Shown here: positions 16,804-41,713 of the stretch, one piece after another
How positions within the stretch are numbered: the stretch's first letter is position 1
Layout: each line of letters begins with the position of its first letter
IMG/VR virus record: IMGVR_UViG_3300027796_000287
Span: 1 to 46,165 of that record
Reading direction: 5' to 3' (one strand)
Origin: a virus
DNA length: 46,165 nt
Position numbers and translations under genes: made by a program
Notes under the pieces: generated by a model
What the model saw: the letters and a program-made list of their open reading frames with translations, nothing else
Database searches by the model: none
What the model was told of the DNA's origin: nothing

Positions 16804-18522
16804 ATGCTGGTTGCTTCTCCCGAGCCGGGCGCCCCGGCGCTCGGCCCGATGCCGCTGGTCTACGGCTCGGTATGCAGCGGGATCGAGGCGGCGACGGCGG
16901 CGTGGGAGCCGTTGGGCTGGCGAGCGGCATTCTTCGCCGAGATCGAACCGTTTCCTTCGGCCGTGCTGGCGCACCGCTATCCCACCATCCCGAATCTCGG
17001 TGACATGACCGCCATCGACGGTTCGGCGTGGCGCGGGAAGATCGACGTGCTGGTGGGCGGGACGCCCTGCCAAGCCTTCTCGGTGGCGGGCTTACGCAAG
17101 TCGCTGGACGACTCCCGTGGCAACCTTGCTCTCAAATTCGTGGAACTCGCCGATGCCATCGACCCAGCTTGGATTGTTTGGGAGAACGTCCCCGGAGTCC
17201 TGTCCACCCGCGACAATGCCTTCGGATGCCTTCTGGGCGGACTGGCCGGAGAAGATGGTCCGGTTGTCCCGCCAGGGAGAAAATGGTCGGACGCTGGTGT
17301 TGTCGTTGGACCCGCGCGCACAGTCGCGTGGCGGGTGCTCGACGCCCAATATTTCGGCCTGGCCCAACGCCGCCGTCGTGTGTTCGTTGTCGCAGGTGCT
17401 GGAGACCGGGCCGATCCCGTCCAAGTACTTCTTGAGCGCGAAGGCGTGCGCCGGGATCATCCGCCGCGCCGAGAAGCGGAACAAGCTGTTGCCCCCACGC
17501 TTGATGCTCGCGCTGGCCGAAGCGGCGAAACGTCATTCGCCACCAGCGGCGGACTGATCGCCGAGGCGTTCGGCGGCAACAACACCTCCGGCCCCATCGA
17601 CGTCGCCACCGCGCTTAATGCCTGCGCCTCGGCCAGTGGGCGAATGGATTTCGAGAGCGAGACCTTCGTCGCCACCACCTTGCGGGCACGCGACCTGTCC
17701 CGTGGCGTGGACAGCGACTGTACCGACACGCTGATCGCCCACACCCTGCGGGCCGAGTCGAACCTCGCTCACCGGCCCGACATCGACACCCTGGTCACCC
17801 ATTCCCTACGGGGCGAAGGTTTCGATGCTTCCGAGGATGGGACCGGACGAGGCACGCCGATGGTGCCTGTGGCGATCCCCATTCAGGAGGCCGGTGCCCG
17901 CACGGGAATCAGCACTACGGACGTGCGTGCCGGAATCGGCATCGGCGGTGACGGCGACCCCATGTTCACCTTGCAGGCGGGCAAGCAGCACGCCGTGGCG
18001 TTCAACCTGCGTGGCCGCGACGGTGGGGCGCAGGCTGAGATTGATGCCGACAACCTCGCCAGCCTACGTGCGGCCAGCGGCGGCTCTAGCCGCAGCTATG
18101 TGGCCTTCGCCCAGAATCAGCGGGACGAAGTTCGGACCTTGGATGTTGCTGGCGCCTTGGCGGCGGAGCCGGGAACCAAACAGCAGACCTATGTCGCTTT
18201 CGACTGTAAGGCCGGCACCGGATTCCAATCAGTCGCGGCCGACGGCGTTACGCCGACCCTGCGGGCCATGTCGGCCCTGGGCCGCGACAATGGCGGCGGC
18301 CAATTGGCGGTCCAGCACGACCTGTCGGTGCGCCGCCTGACGCCCCGCGAATGCGAGCGCCTCCAGGGTTTCTCCGACGATTACACCCAGATCCTCTGGC
18401 GCAAGAAGGCCGCCGAAGATTGTCCCGATGGCCCGCGCTACCGGGCGCTGGGCAACTCCATGGCCGTGCCGGTGATGCGCTGGATCGGGCGCCGCATCCA
18501 GGCGGCAGGACAACGGCCATGA
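16804..18522 (+). CDS. C5-cytosine DNA methyltransferase (Dcm type)
   Basis: 572 aa. Motif I (YGSVCSGIEAATAAWEPLGW), motif IV GGTPCQAFS with catalytic Cys89, motif VI ENV at 127-129, motif VIII QRRRR, then a long central region (about 225-490) and motifs IX/X (RRLTPRECERLQGF; RALGNSMAVPV). The central region contains repeated modules built around VA-x-TLRA and ETFVA/TYVAF segments, typical of large phage-encoded target-recognition regions. It probably protects phage DNA from host restriction. The gene starts right after a repeat array, and its stop overlaps the next gene (ATGA). No cognate restriction enzyme is adjacent. Confidence 0.92.
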   Translation: MLVASPEPGAPALGPMPLVYGSVCSGIEAATAAWEPLGWRAAFFAEIEPFPSAVLAHRYPTIPNLGDMTAIDGSAWRGKIDVLVGGTPCQAFSVAGLRKSLDDSRGNLALKFVELADAIDPAWIVWENVPGVLSTRDNAFGCLLGGLAGEDGPVVPPGRKWSDAGVVVGPARTVAWRVLDAQYFGLAQRRRRVFVVAGAGDRADPVQVLLEREGVRRDHPPRREAEQAVAPTLDARAGRSGETSFATSGGLIAEAFGGNNTSGPIDVATALNACASASGRMDFESETFVATTLRARDLSRGVDSDCTDTLIAHTLRAESNLAHRPDIDTLVTHSLRGEGFDASEDGTGRGTPMVPVAIPIQEAGARTGISTTDVRAGIGIGGDGDPMFTLQAGKQHAVAFNLRGRDGGAQAEIDADNLASLRAASGGSSRSYVAFAQNQRDEVRTLDVAGALAAEPGTKQQTYVAFDCKAGTGFQSVAADGVTPTLRAMSALGRDNGGGQLAVQHDLSVRRLTPRECERLQGFSDDYTQILWRKKAAEDCPDGPRYRALGNSMAVPVMRWIGRRIQAAGQRP

Positions 18523-19385
18523 CCCGCAATTCTTATCGCATCGACGGCCCCGCCCTGGTGTCGTTCTCGGGCGGGCGCACGTCCGGCTACATGCTGCACC
18601 AGATCCTGGACGCCCATGACGGCCAACTGCCCGACGACGTCCATGTGGTGTTCTTCAACACCGGTCGGGAATTCGAGCAGACCCTGCGCTTCGTCCATGA
18701 ATGCTCGGTGCGCTGGCAGGTCGCCATCACCTGGCTGGAGTTCGATCCTGCCGAGCCGTTCGATACCAACGTGGTGGGCTACAACAGCGCGTCGCGCGAT
18801 GGCGAGCCCTTCGAGAAGATCATCAAGGTGCGGGGCTTCCTGCCCAACCCGACCATGCGGCTCTGCACCCATTACCTCAAGGTCAAGCGCGGCATCGCGT
18901 TCATGCGCGACATGCTGGGCTACGGGGAATGGGTCAACGTCGTCGGCCTGCGCCATGACGAACCCCGCCGGGTCGCCCGCCAAAAGGCCCTGAACGAGGC
19001 CGGCAAGGAACGGTTCGAGACGGTGCTGCCGCTCGACGTAGCCAAGGTGACTCGCCGCGATGTGTCGGCGTTCTGGAAGCACCAGCCCTTTGATCTCGGC
19101 CTGCCCGACAACAACGGCAAGACGCCCCTGGGCAATTGCGACCTCTGTTTCATGAAGGGCGCGGCCACCATCAAGGGGATCATGCGGCTATTCCCCGAAC
19201 GAGCCAAATGGTGGATCGACCAGGAGCGCAACGCTCCGGCCATGGGCACCTTGACCAAGCCGGAAATGGCGCTGTTTCGCGCCGACCGGCCCAGCTACCG
19301 CGAATTGCTCAATTTCGTCCGCCGCCAGCGGGATTTCGAGGGCGGCCCATCCGACGACTGCCTGCCCTGCGATTGCACGGACTGA
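18519..19385 (+). CDS. PAPS-reductase-family PP-loop enzyme
   Basis: 288 aa, ATGA-coupled to the methyltransferase. The PP-loop SGGRTSG is at 17-23 and adenosine-type binding elements follow (VVFFNTGREFEQTLRFVHE). Cys residues occur in MRLCTHYLK, GNCDLCF and the terminal CLPCDC, enough for an Fe-S or zinc site. The family adenylates substrates and includes sulfonucleotide reductases and DndC of DNA phosphorothioation. Placement between two DNA methyltransferases suggests nucleic-acid modification more than sulfur assimilation, but no dndB, dndD or dndE partner is present, so its substrate is unknown. Confidence 0.85.
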   Translation: MTRNSYRIDGPALVSFSGGRTSGYMLHQILDAHDGQLPDDVHVVFFNTGREFEQTLRFVHECSVRWQVAITWLEFDPAEPFDTNVVGYNSASRDGEPFEKIIKVRGFLPNPTMRLCTHYLKVKRGIAFMRDMLGYGEWVNVVGLRHDEPRRVARQKALNEAGKERFETVLPLDVAKVTRRDVSAFWKHQPFDLGLPDNNGKTPLGNCDLCFMKGAATIKGIMRLFPERAKWWIDQERNAPAMGTLTKPEMALFRADRPSYRELLNFVRRQRDFEGGPSDDCLPCDCTD

Positions 19386-19387
19386 CC

Positions 19388-20647
19388 ATGACCCATCCGC
19401 TTCCCGACACGGTCGAGCCTTGGCCCATCGACCGGCTGATCCCCTATGGCCGTAATGCGCGGACCCATTCGGACGGACAGGTCGCCCAGATCGCCGCCAG
19501 CATGGTCGAGTTCGGCTGGACCAATCCGGTGCTGGCCGACAGCAAGGGCAATGTCATCGCCGGGCATGGCCGACTGGCCGCCGCCAAGTCCCTGGGGCTG
19601 GACATGGTGCCGGTGGTGATCCTCGACCATCTGACCGAGGCCCAGCGCCGCGCCTATATCCTGGCCGACAATAAGCTGGCCCTGAATGCCGGTTGGGACG
19701 ACGAGACCCTGGCGGCGGAGCTGCACGCGCTCAACGCCGAGGGCTACGACCTCGACCTGATCGGCTTCTCCGCCGAGGAACTGGACGCCCTGATGGCTCC
19801 CCTCGACGACGAGGGCGACGGCCAGGGCGATGGGGATGAAGATGAAATCCCGGAACCGCCAGCCGATCCGGTGACGCGGCCCGGCGATCTGTGGATCTTG
19901 GGCCGCCACCGCCTGCTGTGCGGCGACAGCACCAGTGCCACCGACGTGGCGCGTCTGCTGGCCGGGGCCAAGCCGCACCTGATGGTGACTGATCCGCCCT
20001 ACGGCGTGGAGTATGATCCCACCTGGCGGAACGAGGCAGGTGTTTCCTCCACCACCCGCACCGGCAAGGTGGCCAACGATGACCGGGCCGATTGGCGGGA
20101 AGCTTGGGCGTTGTTCCCCGGCGAGGTGGCCTATGTCTGGCATTCGGCCATCTACACCAGAACGGTGGCAGACAGCCTGGAGGCCAACGACTTCAAGCTC
20201 CGTGCCCAGATCATCTGGTCGAAGAACCGCTTCGTCCTGGGCCGCGGCGATTACCACTGGCAGCACGAACCCTGCTGGTACGCCGTGCGCAAGAGCGGCA
20301 CTGGCCATTGGCAGGGGGCGCGGGATCAGGCCACAATCTGGGCCATCGGCAACAATGGTGATGAAGACGAGGCTACGGTCCACGGCACCCAGAAGCCGGT
20401 GGAATGCATGCGCCGCCCGATCCTCAACAACAGCGCCGAGGGCGACGGGGTGTACGAGCCGTTCGCGGGCAGCGGCACCACGGTGATCGCCGCCGAGACC
20501 ACGGGCCGCGTCTGTTTTGCCATGGAATTGAACCCAGCCTATGCCGACGTAATCGTCGGGCGATGGCAGAAGCTGACCGGGCAGAAGGCCATCCTGGAGG
20601 GCGATGGCCGGAGTTTCGAGGATTTGGTGGCGGAGCGGAAACCGTGA
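19388..20647 (+). CDS. ParB-domain / beta-class DNA methyltransferase fusion
   Basis: 419 aa. Residues 10-100 are a ParB/Srx-type domain (IDRLIPYGRNARTHSDGQVAQIAAS, VIAGHGRLAAAKSLG, RRAYILADNKLALNAGWD). An acidic linker (about 135-155) follows, then an N6-adenine/N4-cytosine methylase with catalytic DPPYGVEY (D202 onward) ahead of the SAM motif FAGSG (359-363), the beta-class order. Phage enzymes with this fusion methylate adenine in short sites. The start ATG lies 2 bp after the upstream stop, and the end overlaps the next gene as GTGA. Confidence 0.92.
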   Translation: MTHPLPDTVEPWPIDRLIPYGRNARTHSDGQVAQIAASMVEFGWTNPVLADSKGNVIAGHGRLAAAKSLGLDMVPVVILDHLTEAQRRAYILADNKLALNAGWDDETLAAELHALNAEGYDLDLIGFSAEELDALMAPLDDEGDGQGDGDEDEIPEPPADPVTRPGDLWILGRHRLLCGDSTSATDVARLLAGAKPHLMVTDPPYGVEYDPTWRNEAGVSSTTRTGKVANDDRADWREAWALFPGEVAYVWHSAIYTRTVADSLEANDFKLRAQIIWSKNRFVLGRGDYHWQHEPCWYAVRKSGTGHWQGARDQATIWAIGNNGDEDEATVHGTQKPVECMRRPILNNSAEGDGVYEPFAGSGTTVIAAETTGRVCFAMELNPAYADVIVGRWQKLTGQKAILEGDGRSFEDLVAERKP

Positions 20648-20889
20648 GGCAGTCCCGCCGCATGTCGCTCGTGGAATCCGCCGCCAACGTGGTCATTGGC
20701 TATGTCCTGGCGGTGGCGACGCAGGTGGTGGTGTTCCCGCTGTTCGGCATCCACATCACCAAGGCCGACGATCTCGCCATCGGCGGCATCTTCGCGCTGG
20801 TATCCCTGCTGCGCGGTTTCATGCTGCGCCGACTGTTCGAACGCCTATCATGGACGGGACAGCGACAGAAATTCCGGCATTTGCAATGA
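20644..20889 (+). CDS. DUF7220 small membrane protein
   Basis: 81 aa from GTG 20644 (GTGA overlap); the conserved N-terminus QSRRMSLVES supports this start over ATG 20662. There are two hydrophobic segments, about 12-33 (AANVVIGYVLAVATQVVVFPLF) and 43-58 (LAIGGIFALVSLLRGF), joined by a short polar loop (GIHITKADD). The C-terminus is basic. This matches DUF7220, whose role is not known. The position between modification genes and DUF6998 does not favour a holin. Confidence 0.82.
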   Translation: MRQSRRMSLVESAANVVIGYVLAVATQVVVFPLFGIHITKADDLAIGGIFALVSLLRGFMLRRLFERLSWTGQRQKFRHLQ

Positions 20890-21392
20890 CCAACGAAATT
20901 CCCACCGAACGCATCACCGAACTGCTGAGGCAGGCGCGCCGGATTGCCATCGAATACTACCAACTGACGGGCAAGCCGCTGGGAATCACCGGAGAGGTTG
21001 GAGAGTACGAGGCGGCACGCCTTCTCGGCCTCGATCTCGCCGTCGCCCGAGAGGCCGGTTACGACGCCACCGATTCCACCGGGCGCCGCCTGCAAATCAA
21101 ATCCCGCTCCATCCCACGCGCGAAGAAGCTGACGGGCCAGCGCCTGGGTGCCATCGACCTCCGAAAACCATGGGATGCTGTCCTCCTTGTCCTGATGGAC
21201 GAGCTTTTCGAGGCTGTGTCGATCTATGAGGCAGCTCGCCCGGCAATCGAAGCGGCACTGCTGAAGCCGGGGAGCAAGGCCAGGAATGAACGCGGCGCGT
21301 TGGCGATCACCACATTCCGCTCCATTGGCCGGCAGGTCTGGCCCGTCGAGCCAAACCTGCCGGTCGAAACCGATCAGCCGGTGATCCGGTAG
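20886..21392 (+). CDS. DUF6998 family, nuclease-like protein
   Basis: 168 aa from ATG 20886, ATGA-coupled to DUF7220. An N-terminal helix (ERITELLRQARRIAIEYYQLTG) and GEVGEYEAARLLGL are followed by AGYDATDSTGRRLQIKSRS: the spacing of E, D and QxK is that of PD-(D/E)XK nucleases. The rest includes the core strand AVLLVLMDELFEAVSIYEA. It matches DUF6998; activity has not been shown to my knowledge. The gene ends with a 19-bp convergent overlap with the DUF3489 gene. Confidence 0.8.
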   Translation: MTNEIPTERITELLRQARRIAIEYYQLTGKPLGITGEVGEYEAARLLGLDLAVAREAGYDATDSTGRRLQIKSRSIPRAKKLTGQRLGAIDLRKPWDAVLLVLMDELFEAVSIYEAARPAIEAALLKPGSKARNERGALAITTFRSIGRQVWPVEPNLPVETDQPVIR

Positions 21393-30523: not shown

Positions 30524-30600
30524 GCGGCCGTCTCTAATGATTTTGTGAATGCGAACCGGTTCCTTTCTCATTGAGCCGAAACCGCCACTGGAGCTGCCAG

Positions 30601-31239
30601 TTGCGCCTAGACCTCGCGGTAAATGGCGATCTGCGCAAAATCATGGCCGACGAGGTCAAGGCCGCCGAAGACGCGGTCACCGCCGCCATGCGCCAAGCCG
30701 CCGACGGATTGAAGGCCGATCTTCGCCGCCAGGTCACCGAGGCTGGAATGGGCCAGCGCCTCGCCAATACCTGGCGGGCCGAGCTTTATCCCAAGGGCCG
30801 GAAAAGCATCAAGGCGGCCGGCTTCGTCTTCACCAAGGCTCCCACCATCATCCGTGCCTTCGACACCGGTGCGGTGATCAAATCCAAACACGGCTTCTGG
30901 CTGGCGATCCCCACACCCGCCGCCGGGACCGGCGCCCGAGGCAAGCGCATGACGCCCGGCCTGTGGGAGCAAATGCATGGTGCCCGACTGCGCTTCATCT
31001 ACCGCCGCGGCGCACCCTCGTTGCTGGTGGCCGAGGACATGCGGGCACGGAACGGGAAACGGGGCGGCTTTGCCCACGGCAGCGCCTCGGCGCTCCGCAC
31101 CGGACGCGGGCTGGCCACGGTGGTGATGTTCATCCTGGTGCCGCAGGTGAACCTGAAAAAGCGCCTGGACGTGGATGCTGCCGCCGAGCGGTGGGCTTCG
31201 GCGCTGCCTGAACTGATCGTCAGGAATTGGCGGAATTAG
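30601..31239 (+). CDS. DUF6441 minor tail protein (gpZ-like position)
   Basis: 212 aa from TTG 30601 with GGAG seven bases upstream; this gives the usual DUF6441 N-terminus (LRLDLAVNGDLRKIMADEV). The open frame from ATG 30571 adds ten unrelated residues. Features: a helix EVKAAEDAVTAAMRQAADGLKADLRRQV, WRAELYPKG, FVFTKAPTIIRAFDTGAVIKSK, and the C-terminal LKKRLDVDAAAERWASALPELI. It occupies the lambda Z slot, so it probably helps tail completion and attachment to the head. The weak start just after the moron segment suggests that the insertion removed the original start. Stop overlaps the Fic stop by 3 bp. Confidence 0.8.
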   Translation: MRLDLAVNGDLRKIMADEVKAAEDAVTAAMRQAADGLKADLRRQVTEAGMGQRLANTWRAELYPKGRKSIKAAGFVFTKAPTIIRAFDTGAVIKSKHGFWLAIPTPAAGTGARGKRMTPGLWEQMHGARLRFIYRRGAPSLLVAEDMRARNGKRGGFAHGSASALRTGRGLATVVMFILVPQVNLKKRLDVDAAAERWASALPELIVRNWRN

Positions 31240-32471: not shown

Positions 32472-32900
32472 ATGGCCAGCGTCCGCGAACAGATCCTCGC
32501 CGCCCTGCTGGCGCGGCTGGAAACGGTGCCCGGCGCCACGGTGAAACGGGAAGCGCCGCTGCCCGAAACGGTCCCGGCGGGTGGACTGATCATCCTACGC
32601 GACGGCGATCCCGGCGACCCGGAGGTGGTGCTGTCGCCCGTCACCTATCTCTGGGAACACCAGACCGAGATCGAGGTCATCCTCCAGCGCGGCCAGGCTG
32701 ACGACAGTGCCGCCCTCGACACCTTGCTGATGGCGGTGGGCGCGGCCTTGTCCACCGACCGCTCCCTCGGCGGTTTGGCGGAATGGCTGGACTGGGGCGC
32801 CCCCAAGACTTCCGGCCTCGCCATCGACGGCGCCGCCGCCCTGCGCGGTGCCACGGTGCCCGTCACCATCCATTACGCCAGCCCAGATCCGCTGGGCTGA
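32472..32900 (+). CDS. Minor tail protein (gpU-like)
   Basis: 142 aa: a helical start (ASVREQILAALLARLETVPGATV), then PAGGLIILRDGDPGDPEVVLSP and YLWEHQTEIEVILQRG strands, helix ALDTLLMAVGAALSTDRSLGG and a closing strand (AALRGATVPVTIHY). This alpha/beta layout fits the gpU/tail-terminator family that caps the tail tube. It is directly upstream of the tube protein, the lambda U-V order. ATG 32472. Confidence 0.82.
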   Translation: MASVREQILAALLARLETVPGATVKREAPLPETVPAGGLIILRDGDPGDPEVVLSPVTYLWEHQTEIEVILQRGQADDSAALDTLLMAVGAALSTDRSLGGLAEWLDWGAPKTSGLAIDGAAALRGATVPVTIHYASPDPLG

Positions 32901-32920
32901 TCCCATCAAGGACTCCGATC

Positions 32921-33886
32921 ATGGGCAAGACGCGCGCTTACGGCGCCGATTGCGTGCTGCTGGCTGCCTTCGAGGCGAGCTACGGCGTGCTTCCGGCCGA
33001 CGGCTACACCCGGCTTTCGTTCAAGGAATGCGCGTTGGGGGCCGAGCGTCCGCTGGGTTACGACCCGCTGCTGGGCCAGGGCCGCGATGCCCAGGATCCC
33101 TATTACGAAGCGGTCAAGGATGAGGGCGATGTCGGCGTGCCGCTTGATGTGCGGGCGCTGGGGTTCTGGCTGAAGGGCCTGTTTGGCGCGCCCACCACCA
33201 GCGGTGATGCCGACACTGCCTTCACCCATGTGTTCACCTCGGGCGGCACGCTGCTGAGCCTGGCGCTGGAGATCGGCCACGCCAAGCTGGCGACACCGAA
33301 GTTCTTCCGCCATGGCGGGGCCAAGCTCGACAAGCTGGCCTTCGACATGGCCCGCTCAGGCGCGGCCAACGCCAGTATCGGCGTCATCGCCCAAGGTGAG
33401 ACCGAAACCACCAGTACCATCGATACCAGTCCGGCCAGCTTTGCGCTCAAGCGGTTCAGCCAGGGCAGCGGTACCATCCGTGTCGGCGGCAGCCAACTCG
33501 CCAACGTTGTCGGCGGCAAGCTGTCCTTTTCCAATAACCTGGAGCGGGTCGAGACCATCCGCGCCGACGGCCTGATCGACGGCGTGGACGAGACCGAGGC
33601 CACCGCCGAAGGCTCGGTGGACATCCGCTTCGGCACCGACACCACGCTGACCGCCGCCATCGCCGCCGAAAGCCCGGTGGAGATGGAATACGGCTTCACC
33701 ATCCCGGGTTCGGACTTTGCCCTGACCTTCCATCTGCCGCGCGTCTTCCTGCCCAAGAAGAAGCAGGAGATCAAAGGCCCCGGCGGCATCCAGGCTAGTT
33801 ACGACTGGCGGGCCGCCCGCGATCCGGCGGCCGGGTACCTGCTCCGCATAACCCTGGTCAACGACGTGGCGGGGTACGGGCTATGA
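32921..33886 (+). CDS. Major tail tube protein
   Basis: 321 aa from ATG 32921. Resembles the Phage_tube_2 family: CVLLAAFEASYGVLP near the N-terminus, long beta-rich body (GGTLLSLALEIGHAKL, LDKLAFDMARSGAANASIGVIAQGE, VVGGKLSFSNNLERVETIRADGLIDG) and a C-terminal strand (GGIQASYDWRAARDPAAGYLLRITLVNDV). It would stack as hexameric rings to form the non-contractile tail tube. The stop overlaps the next gene (ATGA). No Ig-like domain is obvious. Confidence 0.85.
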   Translation: MGKTRAYGADCVLLAAFEASYGVLPADGYTRLSFKECALGAERPLGYDPLLGQGRDAQDPYYEAVKDEGDVGVPLDVRALGFWLKGLFGAPTTSGDADTAFTHVFTSGGTLLSLALEIGHAKLATPKFFRHGGAKLDKLAFDMARSGAANASIGVIAQGETETTSTIDTSPASFALKRFSQGSGTIRVGGSQLANVVGGKLSFSNNLERVETIRADGLIDGVDETEATAEGSVDIRFGTDTTLTAAIAAESPVEMEYGFTIPGSDFALTFHLPRVFLPKKKQEIKGPGGIQASYDWRAARDPAAGYLLRITLVNDVAGYGL

Positions 33887-34398
33887 TCCGCCTGACCATC
33901 CCCAAGGAACCCTATTGGATCGATCTGCCCCATGGCGTGCGGGTGTTCGTCCGTCCCCTGACCACGGCGGTATACGAGGCTGCCCGGGCGCGGGGCTGGC
34001 GCATGGCCCGCGCCATCGCCGCCGAGCATGCCGATCTGAAGGCGGCCGGGGCCGACATCACCGGCCTGCCGGACCTGTCCGACGAGGACGCCCTGGCCGG
34101 GCTGTCGCAGATGCTGTTCGCCCAGGGTCTAGCTCGTTCCGCCATCACCAAATGGGAGGGCGTGCTGGATGTCGGTGATCAACCGGCGGAGGTCACCGAC
34201 ACCGCCATCGCCGAGCTGATGCAGCTTCCCCGCATGGCCGAGTCCTTCGTCGTCCAATACACCGAAACCCATGAAGCGGTCATCGCCGAGGGAAACGTCT
34301 CCAGGCCCGCGCCGAATGGCACTTCGGCGGCGGGCCTGACTACTGCCGAGGCTGCGGCGGAAACTGCGACTGCCCCTACGACCACAACGCCCCCCTGA
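33883..34398 (+). CDS. Tail assembly chaperone G (0-frame product)
   Basis: 171 aa, ATGA-coupled to the tube gene. N-terminal beta region (MIRLTIPKEPYWIDLPHGVRVFVRPLTTA), then helices (YEAARARGWRMARAIAAEHADL; LAGLSQMLFAQGLARSAITKWEGV; TAIAELMQLPRMAESFVVQYTET). The last 33 residues after the slip site are Ala/Thr/Pro-rich low complexity, as expected of sequence constrained by another frame. It sits between tube and tape measure, where gpG coats the tape measure during tail assembly. Most ribosomes should make this form. Confidence 0.85.
   Translation: MIRLTIPKEPYWIDLPHGVRVFVRPLTTAVYEAARARGWRMARAIAAEHADLKAAGADITGLPDLSDEDALAGLSQMLFAQGLARSAITKWEGVLDVGDQPAEVTDTAIAELMQLPRMAESFVVQYTETHEAVIAEGNVSRPAPNGTSAAGLTTAEAAAETATAPTTTTPP
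34290..34337 (+). promoter_or_regulatory. -1 programmed ribosomal frameshift signal
   Basis: Slippery heptamer G-GGA-AAC at 34290-34296, correctly phased in the G frame. Six-base spacer, then a stem-loop 34303-34337: AGGCCCGC pairs with GCGGGCCT, GCCGAA pairs with TTCGGC, one bulged G and a TGGCAC loop. Spacing and stem strength are those of canonical -1 signals; lambda G/GT uses GGGAAAG. Confidence 0.88.
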
Positions 34399-34610
34399 CT
34401 GAATCCGGCTGGCAAGCCTGGGAACTCCTGGCCGGGGCCATCGGCGCCATTCGCATCGGCCCGCGCGGCGGCATCATCGGCCTCGACCTTCCGGCTCTGC
34501 TGATCCAGGCCGAGGCGCTGGGCTACGACCAGCCTTTACTGGCGCGGCTGCTGCCTTTCGCCGAGCGGGGCATGGTGGCAGGTTCCGCCAAGGTTCAAAC
34601 CGAGACCTGA
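34296..34610 (+). CDS. T extension of the G-T fusion chaperone (-1 frame)
   Basis: 104 codons in the -1 frame, ending at TGA 34608-34610, three bases before the tape measure. The fusion is 242 aa (138 from G plus 104). This frame has no ATG, GTG or TTG before codon 93 of the extension, so it can be made only by frameshifting. It carries four Cys as CxxCxxxCxC (fusion residues 155, 158, 162, 164), a likely zinc site, then helices (GWQAWELLAGAIGAIRIG; LPALLIQAEALGYDQPLLARLLPFAERG). By analogy with lambda gpGT, the T part should bring the tape measure and tube subunits together. Confidence 0.85.
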   Translation, partial: RLQARAEWHFGGGPDYCRGCGGNCDCPYDHNAPLTESGWQAWELLAGAIGAIRIGPRGGIIGLDLPALLIQAEALGYDQPLLARLLPFAERGMVAGSAKVQTET

Positions 34611-34613
34611 CCG

Positions 34614-37610
34614 ATGGCCACCAAATCCGTCTCCATCCGGCTGTCCCTGCAGGACGGCGAAACCGTCCGCCGCGCCCTGCTGAAGTTGGGCGAAGATGGC
34701 CAGAAGGCGCTGGCCCGGATCGAAGGGGCGGCGCAGCCGGCCTCGAAGTCGCTGCTGGCCATCAACGCCGCCAGCCAGGACATCCAGGGCGGCATGGCGG
34801 CCTTTGCTTCGCGCCTCGGCCCCATCGGTTCGGTGATGATGGCGCTGGGACCGGCGGGGCTGGCGGCGGGCGCGGCCATCGGCCTGTTCGGCAAGGCCAT
34901 GGTCGAGTCCACCATCAAGGTGGAAAGTCTGGAGGCTCGCCTCAAAGGGCTGGTGGGCGCCGCAGCCCTGACCGAAACCACCTCTTATCTCTATGCCCAG
35001 GCCCAGAAGACCGGCACCGCTCTGGAAACGGTGATCGGCGCTTATTCCCGGCTGGCGGCGCTGCAGAAGGCCGGGATCATCACCACCGGCGAAAGCCGGG
35101 CGTTGCTGGAGGGCTTCCAGTCCACTGCCATCGCCCTGGGGGCCTCGTCCGAGCAGTTGGAGCAATCTCTGTTCGGTCTGGCCCAGGGGCTATCCTCGGG
35201 CACCCTGCGCGCCGAGGAGCTGAACCAGATCGTCGAGCCGATGCCGGGGCTGCTGCAGGCGCTCGACCGGGCCGCCGCGCTGCCCTCGGGCGGGTTCCGC
35301 CAGATGGTGACCCAGGGCAAGGTCACGGCGGATTTCTTCCGCGACACCCTGATCAAGGCGCTGAAGGGCTTTGATGCCGCGGCCATGGAGAGTGCCGACA
35401 CCGCCGAGCGGGCTTTCACCCGCATGGCTAACGCCTGGCAAGGATTCACCAATGCCCCGTGGCTGCGGGGCATCCTGTCGGGTGGCGCCAATGCCGGATC
35501 GGCCGCGCTGGAATCGCTGACGCCGGGGGACAATTCCCTGAAAGTCCGCCTGGCCGCTTTGGACAAGCGCATCGCGGCTCTTGGTGGCGAGCAGGCACTC
35601 GACAAGCCGTTGCCCGCCGGTACCCATTCGGTGGTGGTGCAGGCGGTCCAGCAGGAAAACGAGGAACTGCGTCGTCTGCTGGCCGAGCGCCAGGTCATTT
35701 CCGAGGATCTCGACGAGATCACCCGCAAGCGGGCGGGCATGGAAGCCCATGCCAAGATGCAGCGCGACCAGATCCGCGCCGAACAGCGCGAGCCCACCTA
35801 TGTGGAGAAGCTGGCCGACCTGAAATTCGAGGTGGAATGGCAGGAAAAACTCAACGCGGCGCGCGCCGCCGGCAACGCCGAGTTCACCCGCACCAAGGCC
35901 CAGTACGATGCGGCCAAGGGCTTTCGCCAGCTTGAGAAGGAGCTGTTTCAGCAAGGTGGTGTCTATCGCACCCCGGCCAAGGAGCAGGAAATCCGCGACA
36001 TGCTGGCCCGCGAGGCCCAGGCCAAGGGATCGGGCGAAATGTCCGCCCAGGCTCAGGCCGAGGTGCTGGGCATGGACATCCAGGCCCGTGGCCAGGAGCG
36101 CCTTGCCCTGGCGGCCCGCGAGGGCGGCCGCGCCCAGATCGATGCGGCCCGCGCCGCCAAGGTGCTGGAGTTCGCCTTCAAGAACGGCGGCATTGCCGTC
36201 GCCGCCTATGACCAGGCGCTTCGCCGGATCGACGACGCCAAGCTGCTGGAGCAGAAGAACGGCCTGATCCGGTCGCTGGAGCAGGAAACCGCCGCCAACG
36301 ACCGGCTGGCCGAGGCCGCTAAGGGCTCGGTGGCCGACATCATTCTGGCGGAACGGACCAACTGGCTGGCCGAGCAGGCGGCCAAGGGGCAGACCGACGC
36401 CAATGGCGAACTGGCTCAGTCCTACGCCCAGGTGCAGAAGTCCCGCGCCAACAGCGAAGCGGCTCGTGCCATCGCCGATCTGGAACGGGAGATCGATGCC
36501 CAAATGCGTCTGGCCGAGGCGGTGCGCAGTGGCGACCGCAATCGTGCCCGCGACGTCACCATCGACGGCGACGTGGCCAAGTTCGCCCGCAGCCACAAGC
36601 TGGCCGAGGACGATCCCCAGGTGGGCGAGTATCGGACGGCGCGGTCACGTCAGTATGCCGAGGCGGTCAAGGACGAGGCCCAGCAGACCAATCTGGCCTA
36701 TGACGCCACGCTTCGGTTCAAGGATGAACTGGCCAAGCTGAACGAACAGCGGGCCAGCGGCGCCTTGTCGGAGGAAGCCTACGCCCGCCGCTACAAAGAA
36801 CTGGAGCAGGACAAACTTTCCGCCAGCCGCGACTGGCAGGACGGCGCCATCCGCGCCGTGCGGGCCTATGTGGATGAGGCCAGCAATGCCGCTGCCTCTG
36901 CTGAACGCGCCATGTCCGGGGCGCTGCGGGCCAGCGAGGATGCCTTTGTCAAATGGGCCACGACCGGAAAGTTGGCCGGGCAGGATCTATTCAACAGCCT
37001 AGCCGAAGAGGCGCTCCGTGCCGCCTGGCGCATGGCGGTGGTGGCGCCCTTGTTCGGCGGGGCCAGCGGTGGGCTGTTCGGCGGCATGATCGCCAGTGTC
37101 GGCAGCTTCTTCTCCGGTGGGGCCACCGCCGGCACCGGCTCGGGCGGCGGCTCGGTGCCGGTGCCCAGCACCGGTAATTTCGCCATCGCCCATTCTGGCG
37201 GCCTGATCGGCCTCGACCGGTTGCAGACCCGCACATACAGCGCCTCGGTGTTCGCTGGAGCGCCCAAGTATCATGGTGGCGGTCTGGTGGCGGGTGAGCG
37301 GCCCATCATCGCCAAGGTGGGTGAAGGAGTGTTCACGCCCCGGCAGATGGATAACGCCGACCGCCTGCTGGGAGCGGCCCTGTCCAGACCGACGGCAGCG
37401 GCCAACGTGCAGATCACCGTCCACAACAATGCCGGCAACACCGAGGCCAAGGCCCAGTGGTCGCAAGGGGCCGACGGCAGCATCCAGATCGACATCTTCG
37501 TCGAGGAGATCGAAGGTCGGATGAACCGCCGCATCGCCCGTGGCGAGGGCATGGCCCCGATGCTGGAGCAGCGTTACGGCCTCAATCCGGTGGCGGGAAG
37601 CTATCGATGA
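34614..37610 (+). CDS. Tape measure protein
   Basis: 998 aa, the longest gene of the window. N-terminal lambda-type tape-measure domain (ARIEGAAQPASKSLLAINAASQDIQ; a hydrophobic stretch MMALGPAGLAAGAAIGLFG around 75-95; ETVIGAYSRLAALQKAGIITTGE; SLFGLAQGLSSGTLRAEELNQIVEPMPGLLQAL). Long coiled-coil-like middle (360-750). The C-terminal part resembles the end of gpH: AEEALRAAWRMAVVAPLFGG, a Gly-rich segment and GGLVAGERPIIAKVGEGVFTPRQMDNA. It sets tail length and is probably ejected with the DNA. The ATG at 34614 follows the T-extension stop by 3 bp. Confidence 0.93.
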   Translation: MATKSVSIRLSLQDGETVRRALLKLGEDGQKALARIEGAAQPASKSLLAINAASQDIQGGMAAFASRLGPIGSVMMALGPAGLAAGAAIGLFGKAMVESTIKVESLEARLKGLVGAAALTETTSYLYAQAQKTGTALETVIGAYSRLAALQKAGIITTGESRALLEGFQSTAIALGASSEQLEQSLFGLAQGLSSGTLRAEELNQIVEPMPGLLQALDRAAALPSGGFRQMVTQGKVTADFFRDTLIKALKGFDAAAMESADTAERAFTRMANAWQGFTNAPWLRGILSGGANAGSAALESLTPGDNSLKVRLAALDKRIAALGGEQALDKPLPAGTHSVVVQAVQQENEELRRLLAERQVISEDLDEITRKRAGMEAHAKMQRDQIRAEQREPTYVEKLADLKFEVEWQEKLNAARAAGNAEFTRTKAQYDAAKGFRQLEKELFQQGGVYRTPAKEQEIRDMLAREAQAKGSGEMSAQAQAEVLGMDIQARGQERLALAAREGGRAQIDAARAAKVLEFAFKNGGIAVAAYDQALRRIDDAKLLEQKNGLIRSLEQETAANDRLAEAAKGSVADIILAERTNWLAEQAAKGQTDANGELAQSYAQVQKSRANSEAARAIADLEREIDAQMRLAEAVRSGDRNRARDVTIDGDVAKFARSHKLAEDDPQVGEYRTARSRQYAEAVKDEAQQTNLAYDATLRFKDELAKLNEQRASGALSEEAYARRYKELEQDKLSASRDWQDGAIRAVRAYVDEASNAAASAERAMSGALRASEDAFVKWATTGKLAGQDLFNSLAEEALRAAWRMAVVAPLFGGASGGLFGGMIASVGSFFSGGATAGTGSGGGSVPVPSTGNFAIAHSGGLIGLDRLQTRTYSASVFAGAPKYHGGGLVAGERPIIAKVGEGVFTPRQMDNADRLLGAALSRPTAAANVQITVHNNAGNTEAKAQWSQGADGSIQIDIFVEEIEGRMNRRIARGEGMAPMLEQRYGLNPVAGSYR

Positions 37611-39153: not shown

Positions 39154-39471
39154 ATGCCGACGCTGCAAGAGCGTATCGACGCATTCTTTGCCGATCCCCT
39201 GGCGGACATCGACGCCCAGCGCCAGGCGCTCGACGCCATGGTCACCGTACCTGATGTCGCAGGCCGAGATGCGATCCCCCTGGATGCCCGCGCTCTCAAT
39301 CTCTGGGTCAAGGTGGAAAGCCCCGAAGGTCTGTTCCGTTGGGACGGCGCCGCCTGGATGCCGTTCTCCCCGCTTGAAGCCCTGCTGCCCTCACCCGTGA
39401 CCAGGCGCCAGCCCGCCGATGCCGGCGAGTTGCTGGAGGACATGGCGCTGCTGGGCCTCGATCTCCTGTAA
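39154..39471 (+). CDS. Small tail-region protein, unknown
   Basis: 105 aa. N-terminal helix (TLQERIDAFFADPLADIDAQRQALDAMV), then VTVPDVAGRDAIPLDARALNLWVKVESPEGLFRWDGAAWMPFSPLEALLP with a carbohydrate-module-like LFRWDGAAW strand pair, and a short C-terminal helix. It starts 5 bp after the coiled-coil gene and ends 25 bp before the RCC1 gene. It may link stalk and tip or assist their folding; no family recognised. Confidence 0.7.
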   Translation: MPTLQERIDAFFADPLADIDAQRQALDAMVTVPDVAGRDAIPLDARALNLWVKVESPEGLFRWDGAAWMPFSPLEALLPSPVTRRQPADAGELLEDMALLGLDLL

Positions 39472-39496
39472 CCCCCCATCACGGAGGATAAATCCC

Positions 39497-41713
39497 GTGT
39501 CCATTGCATCCCTTCGCGGCCTGATCGAATCGATCAAGGGCCGAGGCCAAACCCTGGCCGCCGCCGCAGGCGAGGACGCGGCCTCCGCCCGCGATCTGGT
39601 CTATCTGGCCAAGGCGGTCGAATCCATGGTCGGCGCCGACGCCTTGCTCGGCCTGATCGACGAAGCCGGCAAGCCTGCCGAGATCGTCACCGTGGCGGCC
39701 CCCGGCACCGCCATCCTGGTGCTGTCAGAGGATCAGGTCGGTCGCGATGTCATTGTGTTGCGGCCCGATCAGGGGACCTTCACGGCGGGCGAGGTCGTGG
39801 TGCTGGCCCCGTCGCGGGGATGGGCCGCGATCATCGACAATGAACTGCCCATCCCGGTACGGATCAAAACCGCGATCCAGACGGTGGAGCCGATCACGGT
39901 CGCTCCCGGCAGGAAGGGCTGGCTCTTCTGCGACGGCGGCATGGTCGACCACGTCTTCGATGTCACCGCCGCGGTCGCCGCCGCCGCGTCGCCCCTGGCG
40001 GTGCGCGGCGATCTCTACGTCCGCAATGCTTCCGGCAATGCCCGTCTGCCGCTGGGTGCCGCGTCCAAATTCCTCGGCTCGGACGGAACTGATCCCAAAT
40101 GGCTGTTGCCGCCCGGGCGCACCAACTCGCGGGCCAAGTATCTCGCCAATGATTTCATCGCCCGTGACGCCGACGACAATCTGGTCGCGGGGGGCAATGC
40201 GGTGTCGCTGGTCGCCACGCAGCGCCTGGCCAACCTGATCTCGGACGCGGTGGTCTTTCCCGATCACGCCAACCTGGGTATCTGGGACGCCGACAGCCAG
40301 TCCTGCATGACGTCGATCTATCGTGGTCTGGCGGCGGTGTTCCAGGACGGCGGTCTCTCCGTCTGGGGCAATTCCAACTCGGGCCGCAACGGCGATCCCA
40401 ACGGCTCGCACTGGCCGCATTTCCAGCCGGCGCTTTACCGCACCACCAACGAAGGACATCTGGTCACCGAGAATCTGACCGATGCCGGGGTCAAGCAAGT
40501 CTACGGCAATTACGGCACCACCATGATCCTGCTGGAGAATGGTGAGCTGTACGCCACCGGCTATGGTGGGCACGGCCAGCAGGGTGACGGCACCACCTCG
40601 AGCAAGTCGTTCTTCCAGCGCATCGTCTTTCCCGGCGATGCCGGCCCCGTCCGCTATGTGGTGTCCACCTGCATGACCGGGCCGGACAGCAGCGCCGCCT
40701 TCTACGCCCTGATGGAGGACGGCGACGTCTATTCCTGGGGCTATAACGGTTATGGTCAGCTCGGGCACGGCGACACCGGCAACCGCACCATCCCCACCAA
40801 GATCGCCGCCTTCGAACGCAATGTTCAGTGCATCGTGGCGGCGGGAGGTTCCTACGGCTTCGCCCACTTCGTCACCACCGACAACAAGCTGTTCGGCTGC
40901 GGCTACAACGGCTATGGGAATCTGGGCGACAACACCACAGCCAACAAGCCGGCTCCCGTGCTGATCGATGCGGGTCCGGTGGTGAAGTGCGCCAACACCG
41001 GCTACGGCTCCCACAATTTCGCTTTCTACATTAAGGCCGACGGCAAGCTCTACGCCATGGGCTTCAATGAGAGCGGCCAGCTTGGCGACAATTCCGCCAC
41101 CAACCGCAGCACGCCGGTGCTGGTCGGCAATCTCGGGCTCACCGACCCGACCAAGGTGATCGACATCTGGGCCTATGGCGCCCGTTACGGCGCGGGCGGC
41201 TTCGCGCTCACCAAGAACGGCCAGTTCTGGGCATGGGGCAGCAACGTCAATGGCCAACTCGGCCTCGGCGACACCAACAGCCGACAGGCCCCCGTCCTGG
41301 TGCCGGGCGTCGAGCATGTCTCTCAGGTGGTGTCGCCGACCACCGGCATCAGTCAGGCCACCCAGTACCACTACAACAGCATTCTGCTGCTGCGGCACGC
41401 CTCGGCCGCCGACCGCATCGCGCGGCGCAACGGCTATCCCATGGCCGCCGGTTGGGGCGGTTCGTTCATCGGTGCGCCCAACGCCGCCAATCCCACCACC
41501 GTTTTCCGGTATGTGGGCTTCCCGCCGAAATACCACGGTCGCATCCGCCGCATCGGCTGCTCGGGCTATCACGACGGCACCGCCAATGCCGAGCAGGACG
41601 CCTACGCCCTGGCCATGGACGGCACCGTCTTCGCCTGGGGACCGTCCAGCAACTACGCGCTCGGCGACTGGATGAACACCGGCACCACCTGCCCGCAGCC
41701 GCTGAAATTCTGA
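39497..41713 (+). CDS. RCC1-repeat beta-propeller tail tip protein, probable receptor binder
   Basis: 738 aa from GTG 39497, with GGAGG at 39483-39487; no ATG is suitable. Residues 1-180 are a virion-anchoring region beginning with a helix and a strand-rich part (VIVLRPDQGTFTAGEVVVLAPSRGWAAIIDNE). From about 275 to the end there are seven RCC1-like blades with signatures such as DGGLSVWGNSNSGRNGD, NGELYATGYGGHGQQGDG, DGDVYSWGYNGYGQLGHGD, DNKLFGCGYNGYGNLGDN, DGKLYAMGFNESGQLGDN, NGQFWAWGSNVNGQLGLGD and DGTVFAWGPSSNYALGD. That closes a seven-bladed propeller. By position it is the probable host-recognition protein. Confidence 0.85.
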   Translation: MSIASLRGLIESIKGRGQTLAAAAGEDAASARDLVYLAKAVESMVGADALLGLIDEAGKPAEIVTVAAPGTAILVLSEDQVGRDVIVLRPDQGTFTAGEVVVLAPSRGWAAIIDNELPIPVRIKTAIQTVEPITVAPGRKGWLFCDGGMVDHVFDVTAAVAAAASPLAVRGDLYVRNASGNARLPLGAASKFLGSDGTDPKWLLPPGRTNSRAKYLANDFIARDADDNLVAGGNAVSLVATQRLANLISDAVVFPDHANLGIWDADSQSCMTSIYRGLAAVFQDGGLSVWGNSNSGRNGDPNGSHWPHFQPALYRTTNEGHLVTENLTDAGVKQVYGNYGTTMILLENGELYATGYGGHGQQGDGTTSSKSFFQRIVFPGDAGPVRYVVSTCMTGPDSSAAFYALMEDGDVYSWGYNGYGQLGHGDTGNRTIPTKIAAFERNVQCIVAAGGSYGFAHFVTTDNKLFGCGYNGYGNLGDNTTANKPAPVLIDAGPVVKCANTGYGSHNFAFYIKADGKLYAMGFNESGQLGDNSATNRSTPVLVGNLGLTDPTKVIDIWAYGARYGAGGFALTKNGQFWAWGSNVNGQLGLGDTNSRQAPVLVPGVEHVSQVVSPTTGISQATQYHYNSILLLRHASAADRIARRNGYPMAAGWGGSFIGAPNAANPTTVFRYVGFPPKYHGRIRRIGCSGYHDGTANAEQDAYALAMDGTVFAWGPSSNYALGDWMNTGTTCPQPLKF

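What the first reader, a model, noticed from the sequence alone, without database searches (positions are those of the whole stretch)
34290..34610. Complete -1 frameshift signal makes a start-less, Cys-rich G-T chaperone extension
GGGAAAC is correctly phased in gene G, followed by a 6-nt spacer and a 14-bp stem-loop. The -1 frame then stays open for 104 codons with no start codon before codon 93, and its CxxCxxxCxC and helices look like real protein, while the 0-frame tail is low-complexity. Gene finders would miss the T half. The slip site and stem match the lambda G/GT mechanism, but the zinc-like T domain is different and may define a distinct chaperone class.
Basis: partly seen in the sequence, partly recalled or inferred. 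Interest (0 to 1): 0.75.

Follow-up and report, generated by a model that had tools for sequence, protein, structure and literature searches.

The report
Frameshift-made phage tail chaperone, Cys-rich extension
A phage of magnetic-bacterium relatives makes a tail-building helper protein by having ribosomes slip back one base, a well-known phage trick; the new part is that the hidden half carries four invariant cysteines and explains a database family that was known only as a truncated fragment of unknown function.

Summary
GGGAAAC (34290-34296) lies in the right phase of gene G (33883-34398). It is followed after 5 nt by a very stable hairpin (-30.7 kcal/mol). The -1 frame runs to 34610 with no start codon before codon 93. 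In 146 distinct homologous loci, every cleanly sequenced copy (144) has GGGAAAC or AAAAAAC at exactly the same place. The hairpin is kept beyond what the protein requires (39/39 loci). The T frame is under purifying selection while the G tail is not. T models as a confident fold (pLDDT 92), and its best structural matches are T1-type 'tape measure chaperones'. The gene sits between the tail tube and tape measure genes. So this is a lambda/T1-type G / G-T tail-assembly chaperone pair. That mechanism is known, and Rhodobacter phages already carry the join in GenBank. What is new is narrower. The T half is a Cys4 (probably zinc) relative of the DUF1799/T1 T domain. Pfam DUF7697 and PHROG 11212 cover only its C-terminal half, and in annotated cyanophage relatives T is called from an internal start that drops the Cys cluster. 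Frameshifting, metal binding and binding partners remain untested experimentally.

The parts
33883..34398 (+). gene G: tail assembly chaperone, 171 aa; folded part ends at residue 138, i.e. at the slip site
   Evidence: phrog_313 tail assembly chaperone E 1.2e-15; AF2 pLDDT 88, tail after 138 disordered
34290..34296 (+). slippery heptamer G GGA AAC for -1 frameshift
   Evidence: phase checked; GGGAAAC/AAAAAAC at the same place in 144/144 clean distinct homologous loci
34302..34338 (+). stimulatory RNA hairpin, 15 bp with one bulge, 6-nt loop, 5 nt after the heptamer
   Evidence: MFE -30.7, z -4.6; below a synonymous-codon null in 39/39 loci
34296..34610 (+). T half of G-T, 104 codons in the -1 frame plus stop, no usable start
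   Evidence: T-frame omega-like 0.12 in the T-only region; AF2 pLDDT 92.1
34344..34373 (+). Cys4 cluster C-x2-C-x3-C-x1-C of T, putative metal site
   Evidence: four Cys in 146/146 distinct loci; C17, C20, C24, C26 invariant in the T alignment
34458..34583 (+). stretch matched by Pfam DUF7697 (PF24752), C-terminal half of T only
   Evidence: E 2.6e-11, T residues 55-96; phrog_11212 E 5.6e-20, residues 52-104
32783..33886 (+). tail tube protein gene upstream (ORF extent; scanned from 32921)
   Evidence: Pfam Phage_tube_2 1.7e-49
34614..37610 (+). tape measure protein gene, starts 3 nt after the T stop
   Evidence: Pfam TMP_3 5.8e-38 and Tape_meas_lam_C 4.4e-22

Best explanation
Gene G codes for a tail-assembly chaperone. 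Most ribosomes end at 34398 and make G (171 aa). A minority, paused by the hairpin at 34302-34338, slip back one base on GGGAAAC, continue in the -1 frame and make G-T (242 aa). By analogy with lambda, many G molecules and a few G-T molecules coat the tape measure protein, and the T half recruits tail tube subunits; both leave before the tail is complete. The T half is a DUF1799-like (T1-type) domain in which the linker after the hairpin-coding motif holds four invariant cysteines, most likely a structural zinc site. Shown by sequence and evolution: slip site, hairpin, T coding, gene order, fold resemblance. Inferred: that slipping happens and at what rate, metal binding, partners.
For: Heptamer, phase and open frame. 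Hairpin. Close relatives keep both. 144/144 clean distinct loci keep GGGAAAC (66) or AAAAAAC (78) at one position; in 41 of 146 the T frame is closed by a stop within 15 nt upstream, and 95 of 146 have no start codon from the upstream stop to 60 nt past the heptamer start. DUF7697 hits chosen without the motif also carry the heptamer. Synonymous-codon null: mean z -2.30 over 39 loci, window z -3.12; Arg CGC pairs with Gly codons GGC GGG and Leu CTY with GGG GGC, a synonymous switch that keeps the stem. Selection: T-only region omega-like 0.12; in the overlap T frame 0.24 versus G frame 4.15. Fold: T pLDDT 92.1, structural neighbours 'tape measure chaperone' of T1-like phages with probability 0.98-1.00. 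Coliphage T1 has AAAAAAC and a DUF1799 T annotated as the frameshift product. Between tube and tape measure genes. Rhodobacter phage records annotate the join.
Against: No frameshift product has been measured for this family. Both heptamers end in AAC, and A_AAA_AAC is reported to be much less slippery in E. coli than A_AAA_AAG (PMC5009743). Foldseek E-values for T are modest (best 1.3e-2) despite high probabilities, and no solved structure matches. Metal binding rests only on conserved cysteines. The homologues are related, so locus counts are not independent events.
Confidence: 0.93

Rival explanations
1. T is a separate small protein started inside the -1 frame, with no frameshift (as annotated in two cyanophages: 77 aa from an internal ATG overlapping the G stop).
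For: The annotations exist; many loci have some internal ATG/GTG/TTG.
Against: The internal starts are not at a conserved place and would cut off the Cys cluster, which is invariant. In the window the first start is codon 93 of 104. T-frame selection already acts in the stretch upstream of such starts. The heptamer and hairpin would be unexplained.
Confidence: 0.03
2. The frame change is made by transcriptional slippage rather than by the ribosome.
For: Half of the family has a run of seven A (AAAAAAC preceded by A) that could slip during transcription.
Against: The window and 65 other loci have GGGAAAC, which has no long homopolymer; the hairpin is conserved downstream at ribosome-pausing distance.
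Confidence: 0.02
3. The break is a sequencing error or a decayed fusion gene.
For: Damaged copies do exist (L192, L020/L050).
Against: The same break at the same base in 144 distinct loci from isolate genomes, MAGs and phage contigs; purifying selection on both halves in their own frames.
Confidence: 0.01
4. The Cys4 cluster is not a zinc site but an Fe-S cluster or a redox-active cysteine group that regulates the chaperone.
For: Compact C-x2-C-x3-C-x1/2-C-P is also compatible with other metals; all four Cys are invariant.
Against: Loop lengths between the cysteines vary widely (x3-x17, x1-x16), as in structural zinc knuckles; no Fe-S family matched consistently. This weighs only lightly.
Confidence: 0.2

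Closest known systems
Coliphage T1 tape measure chaperone pair (CPTT1_038/039; T domain DUF1799, PF08809)
   Same: G and G-T made from one start, AAAAAAC slip site, T begins KK[LR], same W...QWR/GQxR...GLD core, directly before the tape measure gene
   Different: T1's T has no Cys cluster; sequence similarity is only detectable by profile (hhalign probability 31%)
Lambda G / G-T (GGGAAAG, from own knowledge; Levin, Hendrix, Casjens; Xu, Hendrix, Duda)
   Same: Gene order, -1 slip near the end of G, low-abundance extended chaperone (PMC5009743)
   Different: Heptamer ends in AAC instead of AAG; T does not match Pfam's lambda T family
Rhodobacter phages RcFrancesLouise, RcOceanus, RcKemmy and others: tail assembly chaperones
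   Same: Same T domain with Cys4, same GGGAAAC, hairpin; join already annotated
   Different: About 42% identical T; zinc and slippery site turned up nothing in a term search of the paper (PMC8601537)
Pfam DUF7697 (PF24752) and PHROG 11212
   Same: Window T passes the curated cut-off (43.7 vs 27 bits); 68 of 69 relatives match
   Different: These models cover only the last ~52 residues and carry no function; the real domain is ~104 residues and never free-standing in the loci seen

Membership tests
Tail-assembly chaperone pair with -1 programmed frameshift (lambda/T1 G / G-T type) | Overlapping genes directly upstream of the tape measure gene and downstream of the tail tube gene | tested here: met
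   Phage_tube_2 upstream, TMP_3 downstream
Tail-assembly chaperone pair with -1 programmed frameshift (lambda/T1 G / G-T type) | XXXYYYZ heptamer in X XXY YYZ phase near the end of G | tested here: met
   GGGAAAC, phase 2 of G, conserved
Tail-assembly chaperone pair with -1 programmed frameshift (lambda/T1 G / G-T type) | Downstream stimulatory RNA structure (common in the group) | tested here: met
Tail-assembly chaperone pair with -1 programmed frameshift (lambda/T1 G / G-T type) | T has no start of its own | tested here: met
Tail-assembly chaperone pair with -1 programmed frameshift (lambda/T1 G / G-T type) | Measured minor G-T product; G binds tape measure, T binds tube protein; absent from virions | not testable with these tools
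   Needs proteomics and binding assays
Pfam DUF7697 (PF24752) | Score above curated cut-off | tested here: met
   43.7 bits vs 27
Pfam DUF1799 (PF08809), T1-type T domain | Score above curated cut-off for the window's T | tested here: not met
   No match for the window at E<=1; relatives match weakly (35 of 69), one above cut-off (L052, 29.1 vs 26): a relative of this family, not a member
Lambda minor tail protein T family in Pfam (or the HK97-type T family) | Pfam match of T | tested here: not met
   Pfam scan of the window T at E<=1 gave only DUF7697
Zinc-binding Cys4 domain | Four conserved Cys ligands in two pairs | tested here: met
   146 of 146 loci, C-x2-C-x(3-17)-C-x(1-16)-C
Zinc-binding Cys4 domain | Bound zinc | not testable with these tools
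   Needs metal analysis or a structure

The most novel reading that the evidence does not exclude
The Cys4 site of the G-T extension acts as a metal or redox switch for starting tail assembly. In addition, the most conserved peptide of the family, A[LR]AEWHFGGG, is conserved largely because its codons form the frameshift hairpin, so that RNA structure has shaped the protein sequence of the T domain's first helix.
Probability: 0.12. Interest if true: 0.6.

Novelty: new variant of a known kind. Interest (0 to 1): 0.42.

Why it matters
It explains an unknown-function family (DUF7697 / PHROG 11212) as the C-terminal piece of a frameshift-only tail chaperone. It shows a widespread Cys4 variant of the T1-type T domain in phages and prophages, mostly of Alphaproteobacteria. 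It also gives an annotation rule (look for [GK]KR...AEWHFGGG...CxxC in -1 of the gene before the tape measure). Finally, it provides a natural series of about 140 slip-site/hairpin pairs, all ending in AAC, for testing how bacterial ribosomes slip on AAC heptamers.

Tried and rejected
PDB sequence search with the T profile and Foldseek against PDB with T and G: no usable match. NCBIfam: nothing consistent. Rfam on 34100-34700: no match. Length of the open frame as evidence: rejected as weak. Second GGGAAAC at 31054: not in the phase a -1 slip needs in ORF 30549-31211 (own arithmetic), not pursued. Stem-pair counting over the whole family was not used because the Arg and Leu subtypes pair in different registers; the synonymous-codon null was used instead. 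Papers on DUF7697: none. DUF1799: one genome paper, no frameshift mention. Zinc plus tail chaperone plus frameshift: two of the seven papers opened, and neither describes zinc in a tail chaperone; the other five were not read.

Full report
What was checked. The window is one IMG/VR virus record of 46,165 bases. Gene G runs 33883-34398 (171 aa) and matches PHROG 313, tail assembly chaperone (E 1.2e-15). GGGAAAC occupies 34290-34296 in the phase G|GGA|AAC. The -1 frame is open 34275-34610; after the slip it gives 104 residues, and its first ATG/GTG/TTG is ATG at 34572, codon 93. The RNA after the heptamer folds into a 15-pair hairpin with one bulge at -30.7 kcal/mol, z -4.6. Among 31 such heptamers on this strand it has the strongest downstream structure. 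A 104-codon open frame is common here (35% of positions), so the frame alone would not have been convincing.

Homologues. Close viral relatives (86-97% identical T) all keep the heptamer and stem. A profile search of species genomes and viral contigs plus earlier loci gave 146 distinct loci with the T motif. All 144 cleanly sequenced ones have AAAAAAC (78) or GGGAAAC (66) in the -1 phase exactly 15 nt before the motif, and the other two have N in or beside the heptamer. GGG and AAA differ at three bases, and no intermediate is seen. In 41 loci a stop closes the T frame within 15 nt upstream of the heptamer, and 95 have no start codon between the upstream stop and 60 nt past the heptamer start, so T can hardly be made except by slipping. 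In 40 loci G ends one codon after the heptamer, and the modelled G is ordered only to residue 138, the slip site. The low-complexity G tail is therefore dispensable.

To avoid bias from the search motif, Pfam DUF7697 was also searched in 289 alphaproteobacterial genomes. The intact matches again carry AAAAAAC or GGGAAAC, including diverged motifs such as ALCRWHFQPG and ALAHWAWRGG; one copy from an earlier search (L192) is damaged and one (L207) could not be assessed because its locus is cut short.

RNA or protein constraint? The codons of the peptide A[LR]AEWHFGGG pair with each other (GCC with GGC, GAA with TTC), so hairpin and peptide coincide. With amino acids held fixed and codons redrawn from local usage, the natural sequence folds better than the null mean in 39 of 39 non-redundant loci (mean z -2.30; window z -3.12). 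Loci with Arg CGC mostly use Gly codons GGC GGC GGG, and those with Leu CTC/CTT mostly use GGC GGG GGC; each choice restores the stem. This is synonymous covariation and argues for a selected RNA structure. Among 29 close relatives, the T-only region has far fewer amino-acid than silent changes in the T frame (omega-like 0.12, against 2-3 in the other frames). In the G/T overlap the T frame is constrained (0.24) and the G frame is not (4.15).

What T is. Pfam DUF7697 and PHROG 11212 match only T residues 52-104, and 68 of 69 relatives match them. In two cyanophage records T is annotated from an internal ATG (77 aa), which removes the Cys cluster. The full T (about 104 aa) models at pLDDT 92.1, and its best structural neighbours are 'tape measure chaperones' of T1-like phages. 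DUF1799 matches 35 of 69 relatives weakly, over the same core. The T frame of coliphage T1, annotated as the frameshift product, starts at AAAAAAC and is DUF1799 (2.9e-12). DUF1799 loci in Alphaproteobacteria also have an in-phase AAAAAAC or GGGAAAC in nearly all cases but lack the Cys cluster. So the Cys4 T domain is a variant of the T1-type T domain, not a separate kind of chaperone. All 146 loci have C-x2-C-x(3-17)-C-x(1-16)-C. Invariant ligands with loops of variable length suggest a structural metal site, probably zinc; this is inference.

How it works. Following lambda (review PMC5009743): G and a small amount of G-T bind the tape measure protein, T recruits tube subunits, and both leave. 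The frameshift rate is unknown here. The AAC ending is unusual for E. coli, but G_GGA_AAC and A_AAA_AAC are listed for G-T genes of haloarchaeal viruses in the same review.

Verdict. The finding is real and the mechanism is known. Rhodobacter phage records already show the join, and their paper mentions the tail-chaperone frameshift as usual (PMC8601537). The additions are the Cys4 signature, the link from DUF7697/PHROG 11212 to T domains of the T1/DUF1799 type, and evidence that the hairpin is selected as RNA.

Noticed in passing
L053/L199 and L056/L197 (Defluviicoccus SSA4, CP058705): One or two N lie in the slippery run; in L053 the single N puts G and T into one frame. This looks like assembly-stage correction of a programmed frameshift that was taken for an error.
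   Followed up: partly
L192; L020/L050: Damaged T genes: in L192 the Cys region and the C-terminal part are in different frames; in L020/L050 T ends after 60 residues with an unrelated tail. Probably decaying prophages.
   Followed up: partly
L212 and L213 (Synechococcus phage Sc-Yong805-1, Nostoc phage Nsp-JY21): Slip site is AAAAAAA and T is annotated as a 77-aa stand-alone ORF whose ATG overlaps the G stop; the Cys cluster is lost in the annotation.
   Followed up: yes
window 16804-18522 and 19136-20647: A C5-cytosine and an N6/N4 DNA methylase gene in the phage's early region, followed by a DUF6998 ORF (20604-21392); possibly anti-restriction or a small modification module.
   Followed up: no
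window 39419-41713: Large tail-region ORF with RCC1-like (regulator of chromosome condensation) repeats, perhaps a beta-propeller tail part.
   Followed up: no
L030/L037/L195/L198/L200 and L031/L038/L046/L050: Single Paramagnetospirillum and Magnetospirillum genomes carry three or more copies of this tail module, so several related prophages share one host.
   Followed up: no
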